Source: an uncultured Candidatus Saccharibacteria bacterium
GTDB lineage: Bacteria; Patescibacteria; Saccharimonadia; Saccharimonadales; 2-12-FULL-41-12
DNA: 5,224 bases
Assembly (NCBI GenBank): GCA_946478995.1
Contig: CAMLDK010000062.1
Coordinates: 1 to 5,224 of the forward strand
Direction of reading: 5' to 3'
Under the pieces are notes generated by a model that was not told the DNA's origin, made no database searches, and saw only the letters and a program-made list of their open reading frames with translations. This document shows positions 1 to 5,224 of this stretch, piece by piece (the first letter of the stretch is position 1; each line of letters opens with the position of its first letter). The position numbers and the translations under genes were made by a program.

Positions 1-977
1 GAAAGAGGGTTTCCGTTAGCATCCTCGAAAGATTTGGTAAGAACCAGCTTACCTGTAGGTGTTTTATTAGGAGTCTCAGGTGGACTTGTTGTCTTTCGTC
101 CTTTAAGAGCAAAGTTAGAACATTTCTTAGGTGTTTCAATAGCAACCGTTACAGTTCCGCCGCCTTTTTTAGGAAGTTCAGCTTCTAAACACCAAGCTGG
201 TGCGCCTTTACCTCTATATCTAGGGTCGGCGAAAGTTACATTATTAACTACACTTGGACCGTTTAAGCCATAGGTCATCTTCTGGAAATGTTCTCCGACT
301 TTAGTTCTACAACTTTCAGCTTCGCCTTTGCGGGCAGCTTGAATTAGAGCACCACGCTCACGCTTATTAAAGCCAAGCAATCTAAGAGCCTGCTTACCTT
401 TAGGGGAAGTTATGTTTCTAATGAATTCAACTTCTGTCTTAGCGCCACCTTCAAAAAGTGGGTCGCCGCCAAGATGAGACCATGTGTATCCCTTGGCCGC
501 TTCTGCGAAAACACCACTGGCAGCAGCGGCAACTCCTAGGCCGGCTACAGCTTTAGATATTTTAGGATGTTTCTTAACAATATTACCTATACGATCTGCT
601 ATGCTTGTGAAAAAGCCTGGGGCCTTTTTGGATTCATCTTCTATCTTTTTCTCGGAAGATGCATCAGCAGGAGCAATAAAACCTGAATCCCTTGCTTCCA
701 TCTCATATAGACCTTCTAGGTCTTCTACTTCAGGATCACCGGCAGGAAGACGGCTTTCCGGACTATCCGGATCCACGGCCGTAGTTGCCTTGCCTTCTTG
801 TCCCCATGAGTCGACAATTGCCTGCTCACGCTCAGTTAATGCTAGAGGATCAGGCTGATCCATAGCGTCTTTTGCTTCCATAGAGCCAACAGGTGCGGCC
901 TCAGGAAGGTATAAACCGACTTCAGGGCTAAAACCTAATGTCATTTCTCGTTCTTGTATAGCTGCTAGAGCTGTCAT
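1..977 (-). CDS. Partial multidomain surface protein with N-terminal export module and start of a Cna-B-like domain
   Basis: The reading frame is open from an ATG at 977 to the window edge: 325 full codons, C-terminus missing. The start is supported by GGGAG 8 bases upstream (986-990) and a promoter about 60 bases upstream. Residues 1-118 are acidic and hydrophilic, with no signal peptide at the extreme N-terminus. Residues 120-163 hold the module shared with the two downstream-numbered neighbours: PGFFTSIADRIG, KKHPKIS, then a hydrophobic Ala/Gly/Val stretch at about 142-160 ending AEAA. Residues 180-292 form a cysteine-containing domain (C223, C263, C286) with segments such as ADPRYRGKGAPAWCLEAELP and VAIETPKKCSNF. 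I do not recognise it as a named family, although it resembles secreted Saccharibacteria proteins I recall. A Pro/Thr linker (297-307) leads into TGKLVLTKSFEDANGNPL, which reads like the first strands of a Cna-B/SpaA prealbumin-like domain. Likely exported and membrane or wall associated, possibly an adhesin. Base composition is more A/T-rich than its neighbours. Gene reality is near certain; function is inferred. Confidence 0.85.
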   Translation of the reverse strand, partial: MTALAAIQEREMTLGFSPEVGLYLPEAAPVGSMEAKDAMDQPDPLALTEREQAIVDSWGQEGKATTAVDPDSPESRLPAGDPEVEDLEGLYEMEARDSGFIAPADASSEKKIEDESKKAPGFFTSIADRIGNIVKKHPKISKAVAGLGVAAAASGVFAEAAKGYTWSHLGGDPLFEGGAKTEVEFIRNITSPKGKQALRLLGFNKRERGALIQAARKGEAESCRTKVGEHFQKMTYGLNGPSVVNNVTFADPRYRGKGAPAWCLEAELPKKGGGTVTVAIETPKKCSNFALKGRKTTSPPETPNKTPTGKLVLTKSFEDANGNPL

Positions 978-985
978 AAAATATT

Positions 986-1016
986 CTCCCACTTAGTTTC
1001 TTAATAAAACTCCCAC
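986..1016 (-). repeat. Duplicated GTGGGAG in the leader of the partial surface gene
   Basis: On the minus strand GTGGGAG occurs twice, 24 bases apart, at 1010-1016 and 986-992, each followed by an A/T-rich run ending in TTTTAT. The copy nearer the gene supplies the likely ribosome binding site, with GGGAG 8 bases before the ATG at 977. The distal copy sits in the transcribed leader and could be a decoy or a remnant of a small duplication. The repeat is visible; any function is speculative. Confidence 0.4.
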
Positions 1017-1035
1017 CCATTTAGGTGTTCCTTCT

Positions 1036-1078
1036 AATATATCACATGAGTTATTTTTTGTCAAGCATATTTTATAAT
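1036..1078 (-). promoter_or_regulatory. Sigma-70-type promoter for the partial surface protein gene
   Basis: On the minus strand a perfect -35 TTGACA (1059-1064) is followed by a 17-base spacer and a -10 TATATT (1036-1041), 5 of 6 matches to consensus. The spacer ends in TGA, giving an extended -10 (TGn). An A/T-rich ATTATAAAA block (1070-1078) lies 5 bases upstream of the -35, where an UP element would be. Transcription would start near 1029, giving a leader of about 50 bases. The gene at 1-977 can therefore be expressed independently of the peptidase operon before it. Confidence 0.8.
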
Positions 1079-1094
1079 AATTCTTTTTATGCTT
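1063..1094 (-). repeat. AT-rich inverted repeat between peptidase gene and next promoter
   Basis: AAGCATA (minus strand, 1088-1094) and TATGCTT (1063-1069) form perfect 7-base arms around an 18-base A/T loop. The left arm overlaps the stop codon of the M15-type peptidase gene and the right arm overlaps the -35 of the next promoter. It could be a weak transcription end for the peptidase operon or an operator. The stem is short, A/T-rich and lacks a good T-tract, so read-through is plausible and neither role is established. Confidence 0.3.
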
Positions 1095-2223
1095 ATTGGC
1101 AGATCGTATTAGGGCCGTTTATACCTATATGCCAGTGTGCTGCGGAGCCGGAGTGTCCCTCATCACCAGGACCTAGAAGCTGGGCCGATTCGCCGTTTCT
1201 CCTCAGAACACGGGAGAAAACACCTAGGAGTTTTTTAGTACCCGGAGCTTTACCGTTGAATCTCATTAAATCGGCGCCTCGTCCCATCCAGTGGTCCGAA
1301 CAGGTGACATGATCGGCGCCAGTAAGGTAATTTACTTTAAATCTCATGATAAGAGATGCTTTATATAGAGTTTCCAGCAATGATTTCTTTATCTTCACGC
1401 ACGCGCCCGGTATCTTATCAATCGGTGCGCATTTTCCCTTACGGGCCAAGTCTATATCATGATGTGCTGACGGACTGGCGCTGATCCGGCCGTCTTTACC
1501 TTTGCGAAGCTCGTTTATAAGCTTTGTAGCGTAATATCTTGCGGTTTTATGCTTAGGAACAGGTAAAAGATTATCGTCTCTACCTTTATTCTTGCCTTCA
1601 TGTTTACCGCCGCCGCCATTCTCGTTTCCCCCGTTCTGACCCGGATTTTCAGGCTGAGAAGGTTGGTCTTCGGAACCGGCCGGAGGCTCATAGCTGCAGT
1701 CGGATTCCACGCTATCTTCGCAAGGAGCTGTTGAAGCTGAGGCTTCGGTGCTTTTGGCACCGGCTGTAGGACTGCCGACTTTAGCGGCAGGAACTTCGCT
1801 ACCCACCGGAGCGGCGTGAGCAGTTTCAGCCGTTACAGCGCCAAAGGTACCGACCGCTCCCAGGGCAACGCCAAAGGTCAGGCCGGGATGCTCGCCGATA
1901 AAACCGGATAATTTCGACATGAAACCGGGGTCTGACTCAGCAGAATCTGCTTCAAAGGTATCTGTTTCCTGTCGGTTCAGCTCGACTATCTCTTCAGCGG
2001 CAGCCTGTCCGCCAAGCTTGGCATGTATCGCATAAGTCTCGCTGCCCGGACCCACGTAACCGTCGGCCACAATAGTTTCAGGTAGCCCAGAATCAAAAAA
2101 CGGCTCAATAGTTGGGATGGCAGGTATAGTAGCCTGTTCCATCAAAGAAGCTTGTCCCATCATCTCAGGACTTTGAGCCGGTAAGGCTTCCGGGTTTCCT
2201 ATATTTGCATCATATATAGCCAT
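1093..2223 (-). CDS. Exported M15/LAS-type zinc metallopeptidase with shared N-terminal module
   Basis: 376 residues. Residues 1-98 are a hydrophilic, acidic pre-sequence. Residues 99-138 carry the shared module: PGFMSKLSGFIG, EHPGLTFG, then a hydrophobic segment (about 115-133) ending TAETAHA-AP, which looks like an AxA signal-peptidase site, although a retained signal anchor is possible. Next comes PCEDSVESDCSYEPPAGSE (167-185), then a Gly/Asn/Pro/Lys-rich linker to about 217. The C-terminal domain (about 220-376) shows SDHWMGRGAD, giving the H-x6-D zinc pair (H311, D318), and HWH (363-365) near the end. This is the signature layout of LAS peptidases (VanY/M15 and ARB_07466-like), which cleave peptide bonds in peptidoglycan stems. 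C265, C275, C308 and C375 could form disulfides outside the cell. A true VanY would carry ExxH where HWH stands, so the exact subfamily is uncertain. Second gene of an operon, 18 bases after the C39-like gene. The ATG at 2223 has only a weak GGA (2229-2231), so coupled translation is likely. Confidence 0.88.
   Translation of the reverse strand: MAIYDANIGNPEALPAQSPEMMGQASLMEQATIPAIPTIEPFFDSGLPETIVADGYVGPGSETYAIHAKLGGQAAAEEIVELNRQETDTFEADSAESDPGFMSKLSGFIGEHPGLTFGVALGAVGTFGAVTAETAHAAPVGSEVPAAKVGSPTAGAKSTEASASTAPCEDSVESDCSYEPPAGSEDQPSQPENPGQNGGNENGGGGKHEGKNKGRDDNLLPVPKHKTARYYATKLINELRKGKDGRISASPSAHHDIDLARKGKCAPIDKIPGACVKIKKSLLETLYKASLIMRFKVNYLTGADHVTCSDHWMGRGADLMRFNGKAPGTKKLLGVFSRVLRRNGESAQLLGPGDEGHSGSAAHWHIGINGPNTICQ
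1694..1725 (-). repeat. Copy 1 of a 32-base near-identical repeat encoding the two-cysteine motif
   Basis: This stretch matches 2876-2907 at 31 of 32 bases, the only mismatch being a silent third-position change. It encodes PCEDSVESDCS in the M15-type peptidase gene. Weaker similarity continues to about 1670. The surrounding linkers have diverged strongly, so this island of nucleotide identity stands out. Confidence 0.8.
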
Positions 2224-2241
2224 ATTATTCCAAAATCCCTA

Positions 2242-3201
2242 TTATTTCTTATAGGTGAAGGTCCAGAGCTTGCCGATTCCTTTTCTTTTCAATGAAGAGG
2301 CGCTCCACCCGCGGCTCTCGCTATCCCCGCTATAACCTCTACCGTTCGGATCAGCTATGCGGAAAAGTCCGTTTTTGAACCTTTTAAGCACCATATAATG
2401 TCCTGCTTGGGTAAAGTGGCCGGAGCCAGGAAGCGCATGAACTATGACTAAACCTCCATTCAAAAGGGCTTTCTTTGCCTGTTGAAACCTGCTGGCACCA
2501 TCAAATCCTTTTACTTTCAAATCCCAGCGTTTACCCATTTCAAAGAAAGCTCCAGGAGATGTACCGGTATTGCCCGGGCTATACCACTGCGGGCTTATTG
2601 CATCAGTGACAGTACCGGGAGTTATGTGTCTGTTGCCTTTCATAGTAGCGCCGGTCATCGCAAGCGCATCAGGGCCACAGCCAGTACTAGGATATGGCCA
2701 ATCCTGCTGGTCATAATTTATAAAGCCAAGAGGCCACTCGTGGCTAGGCTTTTTGTTATCTGGATGTTTTCCTGATCCGCCTTGTTTAGGGGGTTTAGGT
2801 TGGTTATCGTTTTCGGGAACAGAGTCGGGATTATCAGGCTTGGGCTCTTCTTCAGATCCGGCGGGCGGAGTATAACTGCAGTCGGATTCCACGCTGTCTT
2901 CGCAAGGTACTACCGAACTGAGCGCCGCGGTCGAATCCATAGTCCGCTCGGTAATCTTCGGTCCTCCCATAGCCTCAAAGGGTTTGCTGCTTTTTGGTGC
3001 GAGAGTCTTACCCCCGTCAACGGGTGCGCCGCTGGCAACTTCCGCAGCAACAACCCCTATACCAAGAGCAGCTGCCGTAGTCATGCCTAGCGTTATGCCC
3101 GGATGTTCCTCGGCAAAACTAGCTATGCTCGACATCAAGCCGGGACTTTTTAGTGATTCCATGGATTCGGGTCCAACTGGAGCTGGTCGTAATTGTGCCA
3201 T
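2242..3201 (-). CDS. Exported C39-like (papain-fold) cysteine peptidase with shared N-terminal module
   Basis: 319 residues from the ATG at 3201. A frame-open ATG at 3267 lies in the promoter -35 and is rejected. Residues 19-60 carry the shared module: SPGLMSSIASFAE, EHPGITLG, then a hydrophobic segment (about 37-56). The pre-sequence is only about 18 residues. PCEDSVESDCSYTPPAGSE (99-117) follows, then a Pro/Lys/Asn/Glu-rich linker to about 155. The catalytic domain (about 157-319) starts INYDQQDWPYPSTGCGPDALAM, placing an oxyanion Gln (165 or 166) before the nucleophile C175. AGHYMVLK supplies H268 and RIADPNGRG supplies D284. This is the Gln-Cys-His-Asp/Asn order of the Peptidase_C39_2 group. 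No ABC transporter is attached, so it is not a canonical bacteriocin-processing exporter. Likely substrates are extracellular peptides or peptidoglycan cross-links. First gene of the operon, stop TAA at 2242-2244. Family call is firm; substrate is unknown. Confidence 0.9.
   Translation of the reverse strand: MAQLRPAPVGPESMESLKSPGLMSSIASFAEEHPGITLGMTTAAALGIGVVAAEVASGAPVDGGKTLAPKSSKPFEAMGGPKITERTMDSTAALSSVVPCEDSVESDCSYTPPAGSEEEPKPDNPDSVPENDNQPKPPKQGGSGKHPDNKKPSHEWPLGFINYDQQDWPYPSTGCGPDALAMTGATMKGNRHITPGTVTDAISPQWYSPGNTGTSPGAFFEMGKRWDLKVKGFDGASRFQQAKKALLNGGLVIVHALPGSGHFTQAGHYMVLKRFKNGLFRIADPNGRGYSGDSESRGWSASSLKRKGIGKLWTFTYKK
2876..2907 (-). repeat. Copy 2 of the 32-base near-identical repeat encoding the two-cysteine motif
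   Basis: Partner of 1694-1725, 1182 bases away in the same orientation, one mismatch. It encodes PCEDSVESDCS in the C39-like peptidase. Either strong selection on both the peptide and its codons, recent duplication of the 5' half of the gene, or gene conversion would explain the identity. Confidence 0.8.
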
Positions 3202-3238: not shown

Positions 3239-3267
3239 ATAATAACATAAGGATTATAAAATGTCAA
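3239..3267 (-). promoter_or_regulatory. Strong sigma-70-type promoter of the two-peptidase operon
   Basis: Minus strand: perfect -35 TTGACA (3262-3267), 17-base spacer, -10 TATTAT (3239-3244), preceded by TGT for an extended -10. The start of transcription would be near 3232, leaving a leader of about 30 bases before the ATG at 3201. An imperfect inverted repeat (TGTGAT/ATCATA around a 5-base centre, 3271-3287) lies just upstream of the -35 and might bind a regulator, but it is weak. Confidence 0.82.
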
Positions 3268-3300: not shown

Positions 3301-3328
3301 AAAAGACCTTGCTGTAGACAAGGTCTTT
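3301..3328 (-). terminator. Rho-independent terminator after the LPNTG surface protein gene
   Basis: A perfect 10-base stem, AAAGACCTTG (3319-3328 on the minus strand) with CAAGGTCTTT (3302-3311), encloses a 7-base loop and continues to TTTTCT. It starts about 20 bases after the TGA stop of the surface gene. It separates that gene from the peptidase operon promoter downstream. The T-tract is short. The stem is symmetrical enough to act on the other strand, but no gene there needs it. Confidence 0.8.
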
Positions 3329-3347: not shown

Positions 3348-4268
3348 TCAGAGGCCTAGGCGGCGAGTAATTGCCGAGTAGGCAAAGCTGGCAAGAGAGC
3401 TTACACCTATGAAAGTCGCTACTACGGCACCGGGGCCGGTGTTAGGCAATTCTTCCGGCTGAACCTTACCGGCGGGCTGTTCGGGCTTCGGTTCGGGTTT
3501 AGGAGCGGGCGGCTTTTGATAAACTATCTGGGTTACGGGGGGAGTTTCCGGCTGTTCAGGTGGCGGAGTTACTTGCGTACTACCGCACGTCGCCTCTATC
3601 TTGCCTTTTGCTTGGGCAACCGCTTTGGCTTTGGCGCTGTCTTTGAGCTGGACTTCCAAGGTGTCGATATTGCCATGCGCCGACATCAGCATTTGACGGG
3701 TTATCTTTACCTTAGCAAGCGCGAAGCCGGTAGACTGAGCATTTAGCTTGGATCCGTCAGGACAGACTATCTCTTCGCTCAGATTAACCGTGGCCTTGGC
3801 CGTGGCATCCATATTGACATCATTGAAATTCCTGACCATTACCACCGGACCGTTAACGACCGGACCAGGAGGCGGGCCATTAGGCTTATAGGGATTACCG
3901 CAGTTCCTGCCCGTCTGGCCGCCATCAACCTTTACCCAGCCAGTAGGCGAATTAGAGTTGCGGCAAATCTTGGCATTTACCGGGTCATGGAACCATTGCA
4001 AACCGCCATTTATGCTTCGGCCTGAGTTATAACCACCTTGGACCCAATGACATTTCTGGTTATTCGTGCCATTGTGCATCTTTACGTCTTCAAGTACGGT
4101 ACCTCTGTAATTAATACCCGAAACATCAACCTGCTCCCCTGTAACGGTATAAGGCTCGTTCGCTTTTACCCCTGGAGCGCTAAGACTGAGAGCCAAGGCC
4201 ACGGCAAGAGCGAGCAGGCCTATAATCAGCCGTTTGTTCATTTCGACTATTTTTCTTGCCAGCTCCAT
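3348..4268 (-). CDS. Secreted LPNTG sortase-anchored surface protein
   Basis: 306 residues. The start at 4268 is set by AAGGAGG 8 bases upstream (4277-4283); the internal Met 10 lacks a ribosome binding site. A classical signal peptide is visible: charged MELARKIVEMNKR, hydrophobic core about 14-31, likely cleavage after VKA (36). The mature region about 40-230 is not a family I can name. It has five cysteines (C73, C102, C123, C169, C228) and is rich in Asn/Gly, with stretches such as GGLQWFHDP and GGQTGRNCGNPYKPNGPPPG. A Pro/Glu/Lys linker (233-270) suits spanning a cell wall. The C-terminus is a standard sorting signal: LPNTG (274-278), hydrophobic segment (about 280-299), then RR. A sortase would join the Thr to the envelope. 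No sortase gene lies in the window. It is a monocistronic unit with its own promoter and terminator. It does not carry the HPG module of its neighbours. Adhesion or a structural surface role is inferred. Confidence 0.92.
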   Translation of the reverse strand: MELARKIVEMNKRLIIGLLALAVALALSLSAPGVKANEPYTVTGEQVDVSGINYRGTVLEDVKMHNGTNNQKCHWVQGGYNSGRSINGGLQWFHDPVNAKICRNSNSPTGWVKVDGGQTGRNCGNPYKPNGPPPGPVVNGPVVMVRNFNDVNMDATAKATVNLSEEIVCPDGSKLNAQSTGFALAKVKITRQMLMSAHGNIDTLEVQLKDSAKAKAVAQAKGKIEATCGSTQVTPPPEQPETPPVTQIVYQKPPAPKPEPKPEQPAGKVQPEELPNTGPGAVVATFIGVSSLASFAYSAITRRLGL

Positions 4269-4394: not shown

Positions 4395-5224
4395 CTATTT
4401 GCCGTGTCTTCTCAGGGAATGTTTCTTCTTTTGGAAACAGAAGCCAAACATGCTGCCTTTATTCTCTTCACTTTCGAAAAGCAGGTTTCCACCTTGGCTA
4501 TCTATAACTTTCTTAGCCATAAAAAGCCCTAAACCGGTGCCATCCGGACGTGCCTTGCGGGCATTTGATGCCCGATAAAATTTGGTGAACAAATGCGGAA
4601 TGTCGGATTTTGGCACGCCGAGGCCGTTATCTATCACCTTGAAGTAGATATTACCCTTATCTTCGCTGAGCTCGACCTTCACCTTGCCGCCTCTTGGGGT
4701 GTAGTAAATGGCATTGTCGGCGAAATTCATGATCACCTGCCGGATCTTGGTCTCGTCTAATGCCAGGGTCGGGAAATCCTTCGGTTTTTCATACTCTATA
4801 TCTATCTTCTTGGCTTTGGCGGTTTCCCTAAGCTGGCCGATTTCGCCTTCGATGACTTCTGCCAGATTGGTAGGCGTCGGCTCGATAACGAATTTTCCGG
4901 TCTTGAGGCGGGAAACATTCAGCAGATCGGCTATCAGATAGACCATCCGCTGAGAGCTGACAAATGCCTGGTTTAGCAGGTCCCTTTGCTGTTTGGTGAT
5001 CTTACCGGCATCTCCTTCTAAAACCATGCTCATATAGCCTTTGACACTAGTAAGGGGCGTCCGCAGCTGATGTGATGCCATGCTGATAAACTCGTCCTTA
5101 GTTTCGTCAAGCTCGCGCAGCTTCTTATTGGTGCGCTGCAGCTTGGCCGTAGCGGTATTGACTTCCGCCTGCAGCTTGGCCGCAAACCCTTGTATCTCTT
5201 CAAATCTAAGGGCGTTTTCTATGG
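4395..5224 (-). CDS. Sensor histidine kinase, C-terminal part (N-terminus outside window)
   Basis: 275 codons are visible; the frame is open to the right edge, so the sensor region is missing. The first residues, IENALRFEEIQ, resemble the end of a GAF-type sensor domain, followed by a coiled-coil-like linker (about 10-44). The HisKA domain has the H-box SMASHQLRTPL with H51 (visible numbering) as the phosphate acceptor. The HATPase_c domain is complete: N-box QVIMNFADNAIYYTP, G1 DNGLGVP, F-box FTKFYRAS and G2 GTGLGLFMAKK. It would autophosphorylate using ATP and pass the phosphate to a response regulator that is not in the window. The tail ends in a basic KKKHSLRRHGK after the catalytic fold. 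The stop TAG is at 4395-4397. Its 3' end lies 126 bases before the LPNTG gene, which has its own promoter, so the two are probably separate units. Kinase identity is certain; the signal it senses is unknown. Confidence 0.95.
   Translation of the reverse strand, partial: IENALRFEEIQGFAAKLQAEVNTATAKLQRTNKKLRELDETKDEFISMASHQLRTPLTSVKGYMSMVLEGDAGKITKQQRDLLNQAFVSSQRMVYLIADLLNVSRLKTGKFVIEPTPTNLAEVIEGEIGQLRETAKAKKIDIEYEKPKDFPTLALDETKIRQVIMNFADNAIYYTPRGGKVKVELSEDKGNIYFKVIDNGLGVPKSDIPHLFTKFYRASNARKARPDGTGLGLFMAKKVIDSQGGNLLFESEENKGSMFGFCFQKKKHSLRRHGK

What the first reader, a model, noticed from the sequence alone, without database searches (positions are those of the whole stretch)
1..3201. Three adjacent genes share an N-terminal export module but end in unrelated domains
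The proteins at 1-977, 1093-2223 and 2242-3201 align around PG[FL][FM][ST]xx[IL], then [EK]HP[GK][LI][ST], then one hydrophobic segment ending in an A-E-[AVT]-A-like stretch. Downstream they carry, respectively, a Cys-containing domain plus Cna-B-like start, a LAS zinc peptidase and a C39-like cysteine peptidase. A constant N-terminus with swapped C-terminal effectors resembles polymorphic toxin or surface-display systems. I know of no named signal-peptide class with this EHPG motif; the nearest functional analogy is the YSIRK-G/S signal peptide of Gram-positive bacteria. In a Saccharibacteria-like epibiont such proteins could act on the host envelope.
Basis: partly seen in the sequence, partly recalled or inferred. 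Interest (0 to 1): 0.78.

Follow-up and report, generated by a model that had tools for sequence, protein, structure and literature searches.

The report
Shared export leader on different peptidases
In a tiny, probably host-dwelling Saccharibacteria bacterium, neighbouring genes for unrelated secreted proteins, two of them likely cell-wall-cutting enzymes, begin with the same export leader, and related enzymes elsewhere carry a different leader, so the leader may be an exchangeable part.

Summary
A shares only the leader, more weakly, but above 143 of 143 background windows. C is a C39-like cysteine peptidase; B carries LAS zinc-peptidase motifs; A's domain is unnamed. The module is not class-wide: 392 class genomes gave nothing convincing, and two other carriers were found (P0002, P0003). 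Relatives suggest exchange: P0006 has a C39 domain 65% identical to C's behind an unrelated leader; that second leader type also precedes a LAS domain (P0004) and another C39 (L003). Topology tests do not prove swapping. Best reading: a lineage-specific Sec leader shared by secreted, probably wall-cutting peptidases at a histidine kinase/LPXTG-like locus. It works like APD1/APD2 or MafB-N constant regions; membership is not shown. No immunity gene is seen, so a polymorphic toxin is not supported. Export, cleavage, substrate and host target are untested.

The parts
4395..5222 (-). C-terminal part of a sensor histidine kinase (HisKA + HATPase_c), cut by the window edge; marks the conserved locus
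   Evidence: Pfam HisKA 57.9 bits and HATPase_c 89.6 bits; 35 of 37 relatives found are 62-78% identical, 20 of them titled Saccharibacteria, Saccharimonas or Saccharimonadales
3348..4268 (-). Gene D: secreted protein with ordinary short signal peptide and C-terminal LPNTGPG sorting-like tail
   Evidence: NCBIfam LPXTG model 10.3 bits at residues 273-300, below its cut-off 15.9; tail 56.6% identical over 53 aa to an L003 protein
3429..3449 (-). LPNTGPG sorting-like motif of D
   Evidence: read in the sequence; same motif class in 18 of 26 evaluable HK loci
3302..3328 (-). terminator-like stem-loop just after D (the scan reported it on the + strand; the stem is a near-symmetric inverted repeat)
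   Evidence: 10 pairs; number of such sites in the window (7) not above shuffles (6.9)
3239..3267 (-). promoter-like site before C (TTGACA-17-TATTAT)
   Evidence: 11 of 12 matches; number of promoter-like sites in the window (6) not above shuffles (6.5)
2242..3201 (-). Gene C: leader + two-Cys linker + C39-like cysteine peptidase
   Evidence: Peptidase_C39_2 32.8 bits, cut-off 24; Cys175, His268, Asp284 invariant in 6 of 6 aligned proteins
3016..3159 (-). leader of C (ESLKSPGLMSSIASFAEEHPGITLG...ASGAPVD)
3097..3108 (-). EHPG of C
   Evidence: read in sequence
2878..2904 (-). CEDSVESDC linker of C
   Evidence: invariant in B, C, P0002, P0003; inside a 59-nt direct repeat, 85%
1093..2223 (-). 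Gene B: N-terminal extension of about 113 residues + leader + two-Cys linker + LAS-type zinc peptidase domain; 18 bp after C
1801..1941 (-). leader of B (AESDPGFMSKLSGFIGEHPGLTFG...AHAAPVG)
1882..1893 (-). EHPG of B
   Evidence: read in sequence
1696..1722 (-). CEDSVESDC linker of B
1093..1569 (-). LAS-type peptidase domain of B; SDHWMGRGAD at 1270-1299 and HWHIG near the end
1036..1064 (-). promoter-like site before A (TTGACA-17-TATATT)
   Evidence: 11 of 12 matches; same caveat as for C
3..977 (-). Gene A: long N-terminal extension + divergent leader + LGGDP domain; cut at the window edge
489..635 (-). leader of A (ESKKAPGFFTSIADRIGNIVKKHPK...FAEAAKG), KHPK at 561-572
102..482 (-). LGGDP domain of A, a family without Pfam or NCBIfam name found in Saccharibacteria relatives

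Best explanation
The three proteins are exported through Sec by a common leader cassette: a cytoplasmic extension of variable length, a short helix ending in (E/K)HP, a hydrophobic segment and an AxA-type cleavage site. In B and C a conserved two-cysteine, Pro-rich linker follows on the outside. The cassette is shared within a lineage by proteins whose working domains are unrelated (C39 cysteine peptidase, LAS zinc peptidase, LGGDP domain), and in relatives it is replaced by another leader type. It therefore behaves as a lineage-specific address-and-tether that is duplicated or exchanged between genes of this surface locus. B and C, 18 bp apart, probably form one transcript and release two peptidases that cut peptidoglycan stem peptides, in the cell's own wall or at the contact with a host. 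Shown by computation: shared leader in B and C, probable in A; catalytic residues; the locus next to a histidine kinase and an LPXTG-like gene; leader similarity not following domain similarity. Inferred: Sec export, cleavage, exchange mechanism, peptidoglycan as substrate, tethering, host contact.
For: B-C 44% over 132 aa, score above 143 of 143 background windows, robust to masking. A-P0003 leader score 71, z 10.4. Leader and domain differ in who resembles whom: C-P0006 domain 65%, leader 21% (score 2); P0006-L003 domain 37%, leader 64% (score 124); P0002-P0003 domain 86%, leader 40%; P0002-B domain 75%, leader 74%. The P0002-P0003 contrast is 19/44 against 137/160 (Fisher 4e-8), while P0002-B is 35/47 against 118/158 (p 1.0). 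P0004 (LAS) shares the second leader type with P0006 and L003 (scores 69 and 71, 0 of 142 background windows). Catalytic residues. Sortase family in 10 of 10 related genomes. LPXTG-like gene in 18 of 26 evaluable HK loci.
Against: Likelihood topology tests do not show conflict by themselves: the C39 domain quartet is unresolved (AU 0.60, 0.40, 0.40) although leaders favour P0006+L003 (AU 0.97 against 0.04 and 0.04); for LAS the domain favours P0002+P0003 (others 0.013) but the leader does not reject it (0.47). The P0004-P0006 and P0004-L003 leader similarity falls to background when hydrophobic residues are masked (p 0.34 and 0.13 with G masked, 0.22 and 0.17 with G kept), and their linkers are T-rich. 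A-B fails masking. The adjacent L003 pair is only marginal (score 38; reached by 0 of 142 background windows with one leader as query and 2 of 142 with the other), and the L096 pair shows nothing (z -1.1). 29 of 51 identical residues between the B and C modules use different codons, so there is no recent DNA-level homogenisation. Genomes of P0002, P0003, P0004 and P0006 are not in hand, so 'same lineage' is assumed. Leader limits were chosen by hand.
Confidence: 0.5

Rival explanations
1. Ordinary old tandem duplication: one secreted gene was copied, the 3' part was replaced once by another peptidase, and fast drift of leaders in relatives mimics exchange. The leader is just a signal peptide with no special role.
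For: B and C are adjacent and co-oriented; codons diverged; topology tests do not prove conflict; signal peptides evolve fast (established knowledge).
Against: B-P0002 leaders keep pace with their domains (74% and 75%) while P0002-P0003 leaders do not; leaders of related domains (C-P0006) are unrelated while leaders of unrelated domains are alike.
Confidence: 0.3
2. Uncleaved signal anchors: the long cytoplasmic extension and hydrophobic segment keep A, B and C in the membrane (N-in), and the linker holds the domain outside.
For: extensions of about 36-139 residues before the hydrophobic segment, conserved between B and P0002; slightly acidic region before the hydrophobic stretch in B and C.
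Against: AxA-like sites follow the hydrophobic segment in A, B, C and relatives (read in the sequences; no signal-peptide predictor was run); relatives of A such as L092 and L093 have shorter leaders with the hydrophobic segment from about residue 20-26.
Confidence: 0.15
3. Polymorphic toxin or effector system with a constant trafficking region and exchanged toxin tips.
For: constant N-terminus, variable enzyme C-terminus, variable gene content between HK and pyruvate kinase in relatives.
Against: no minus-strand ORF of 60 aa or more in the 18 and 115 bp gaps; no PADLOC family above noise; a weak relative of the LAS domain sits in one LysM/phage-tail-lysozyme protein, which points to wall work.
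Confidence: 0.05
4. A is not related to B and C: its leader resembles theirs by composition only.
For: A-B similarity disappears after masking; A lacks the two-Cys linker.
Against: A-C and A-P0003 survive masking and beat all background windows.
Confidence: 0.2

Closest known systems
APD1/APD2 effectors of Amoebophilus, MafB-N toxins of Neisseria and Microscilla-N toxins (PMC3482391, section 37 read)
   Same: lineage-restricted constant N-terminal region in front of unrelated C-terminal enzymes, peptidases among them in Amoebophilus
   Different: here the constant part is the leader plus a short two-Cys linker rather than a globular domain; no lipobox at the AxA site (by eye); no immunity gene seen; leader types differ between relatives. 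Their sequences were not compared with A, B or C, apart from the Pfam scan, which did not list DUF1020
YSIRK/GxxS signal peptides (PMC12004944, passages read)
   Same: extended signal peptide class shared by different surface proteins, with an addressing role
   Different: no YSIRK/GxxS motif; slightly acidic before the hydrophobic part in B and C; much longer extension in A and B; no class-wide occurrence
LAS zinc peptidases (M15/VanX, MepA, hedgehog type)
   Same: SxHxxGxAxD and HWHxG residues; best fold matches include phage endolysins, ChiX, MepA, Sonic hedgehog
   Different: no Pfam or NCBIfam model recognises B; modest Z tied with unrelated rows; low-confidence model
Peptidase_C39_2
   Same: Pfam match above cut-off and Cys/His/Asp set
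   Different: not in a bacteriocin-exporter context; sits behind a leader shared with an unrelated peptidase

Membership tests
Peptidase C39-like (PF13529), protein C | match above curated cut-off | tested here: met
   32.8 bits, cut-off 24
Peptidase C39-like (PF13529), protein C | catalytic Cys and His conserved | tested here: met
   C175, H268, D284 invariant in 6 of 6 aligned; the roles of these residues are recalled
LAS zinc peptidase, protein B | SxHxxGx[AG]xD and HxH zinc motifs (pattern recalled) | tested here: met
   4 of 4 proteins, B included
LAS zinc peptidase, protein B | LAS fold | tested here: inconclusive
LAS zinc peptidase, protein B | recognised by a curated M15/VanY model | tested here: not met
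   0 Pfam and 0 NCBIfam families at E 1; hhalign to a VanY protein aligns 14 motif columns only, probability 0.2%. Hence 'LAS-like', not filed as M15
YSIRK/GxxS signal peptide | YSIRK-G/S motif before the hydrophobic region | tested here: not met
   read in A, B, C
APD1/APD2/MafB-N type constant regions | constant N-terminus before unrelated C-terminal domains in one organism | tested here: met
   B and C clear, A probable
APD1/APD2/MafB-N type constant regions | globular domain just after the signal peptide | tested here: inconclusive
   only a short two-Cys, Pro-rich linker by sequence; residues 1-215 of B below pLDDT 50, but from an alignment of 4
APD1/APD2/MafB-N type constant regions | sequence homology to APD1, APD2 or Microscilla-N | not tested
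   those sequences were not fetched; for MafB-N only the Pfam scan, which did not list DUF1020
Polymorphic toxin system | adjacent immunity gene | tested here: not met
   gaps 18 and 115 bp, no minus-strand ORF of 60 aa or more there; the region beyond A is outside the window
Sortase-anchored surface protein, protein D | LPXTG motif, hydrophobic segment, basic tail | tested here: met
   LPNTGPG...ITRRLGL read; segment 280-296; curated anchor models stay below cut-off, hence 'LPXTG-like'
Sortase-anchored surface protein, protein D | sortase in the genome | tested here: inconclusive
   no genome held for the window; 10 of 10 relatives tested have one

The most novel reading that the evidence does not exclude
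Saccharibacteria use lineage-specific, exchangeable secretion leaders as an address tag: all enzymes meant for one envelope site carry the same leader and linker, and when a lineage changes its tag the leaders of non-homologous proteins are replaced together (concerted leader turnover), perhaps through recognition of the long cytoplasmic extension by a dedicated factor.
Probability: 0.2. Interest if true: 0.75.

Novelty: new variant of a known kind. Interest (0 to 1): 0.5.

Why it matters
How epibiotic Saccharibacteria grow on a host surface is described as virtually unknown at the molecular level (passages of PMC11665869). A shared leader that marks a set of secreted wall enzymes would give a way to list such proteins lineage by lineage even when their domains are new, and leader exchange between unrelated secreted enzymes would be a testable mode of evolution.
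Full report
What is there. The window is a fragment of an uncultured Saccharibacteria genome: the kinase at 4395-5222 is 76-78% identical to that of three genomes, which belong to one family, and a relative of B is named Candidatus Saccharimonadales. No whole genome is held. On the minus strand the order is histidine kinase, D, C, B, A. D ends in an LPNTGPG tail. A terminator-like stem follows D, and promoter-like sites precede C and A with 11 of 12 consensus matches; the total number of such sites in the window is not above shuffles. C and B are 18 bp apart, B and A 115 bp.

Check of the observation. B and C align over 132 residues at 44% (E 2e-24). A aligns to C at E 8e-4 and to B at E 0.010. 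Against 143 membrane-segment windows from proteins of 35 kinase loci, none reaches the A-B, A-C or B-C score. With hydrophobic residues masked, B-C and A-C hold and A-B does not. Leader limits were set by hand. B and C also share an invariant two-cysteine linker, CEDSVESDCSYxPP, present too in P0002 and P0003; A lacks it.

The locus. In 18 of 26 evaluable relatives an LPXTG-like gene follows the same kinase within 9 kb on the same strand; counting one short locus more, 9 of 19 have the preceding same-strand gene ending 22-30 bp upstream of it. L096 has kinase, secreted protein, LPXTG-like gene, then C39; L099 has kinase, A-family protein, LPXTG-like gene. Sortase occurs in 10 of 10 related genomes tested, and in 3 of 14 control genomes.

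How widespread. The module profile finds nothing convincing in 392 class genomes. Beside the window's own proteins, the protein database gave P0002, P0003 and P0004 for B and P0006 for C; of these only P0002 and P0003 carry the module. The module-only search found P0002 alone and missed P0003 and C, so it is not exhaustive.

Leader exchange. P0006 has C's peptidase (65%) but not C's leader (21%, background). Its leader is that of L003's C39 (64%), whose domain is only 37% identical. P0004, a LAS protein, has a leader of this second type. P0002 and P0003 share 86% of the LAS domain but only 40% of the leader, whereas the more distant pair P0002-B keeps 74%. Both leader types thus stand before both peptidase types. 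Against this: topology tests do not show significant conflict, the P0004 similarity depends on hydrophobic residues, the L003 neighbour pair is marginal, and the L096 pair is negative. In the survey of 541 proteins, N-terminus-only sharing inside one locus occurs in two pairs, one of them B/C. Codons of B and C have diverged (29 of 51 identical residues), so the sharing is old and probably kept by selection.

Reading. The simplest account is a lineage-specific export leader, with linker, shared by secreted enzymes that probably cut peptidoglycan, and turned over between lineages. It works like the constant N-termini of Amoebophilus and Neisseria effectors (section 37 of PMC3482391); membership in those families was not shown. 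Export, cleavage and target are inferred.

Noticed in passing
L001, L007, L010, L018, L021, L023 downstream of the kinase: An AAA ATPase (MoxR-like by eye), a DUF58-like protein and a membrane protein form a cluster between the same kinase and the LPXTG-like gene; no family search was run on them.
   Followed up: no
L030, L019, L027, L010, L020, L021, L007 (C-termini of the gene before the LPXTG-like gene): The secreted protein before the LPXTG-like gene in these loci ends in a short tail of one of two types (KGxDPGIG[GN] or CDPxIxxC) after a T/P-rich stretch.
   Followed up: no
L003 11815-12996 and L096 3050-4306: Secreted proteins at the same locus share an unnamed Cys- and Ala-rich domain (E 8e-30).
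   Followed up: partly
L063 74-1938: A VanY-type peptidase ORF (Pfam 53.9 bits) lies next to a C39-type peptidase ORF in another genome of the class, a second pairing of these two enzyme types.
   Followed up: partly
L008 7286-8944 and 9026-10831: Another adjacent pair sharing only its first ~97 residues (77% identity), with a dockerin-like stretch by eye.
   Followed up: no
window 1933-2223 (residues 1-97 of B): The long N-terminal extension of B is conserved in P0002 (YDANIG, GPGSETYxxHAKxGGxAAAEE) and has no Pfam or NCBIfam match.
   Followed up: no
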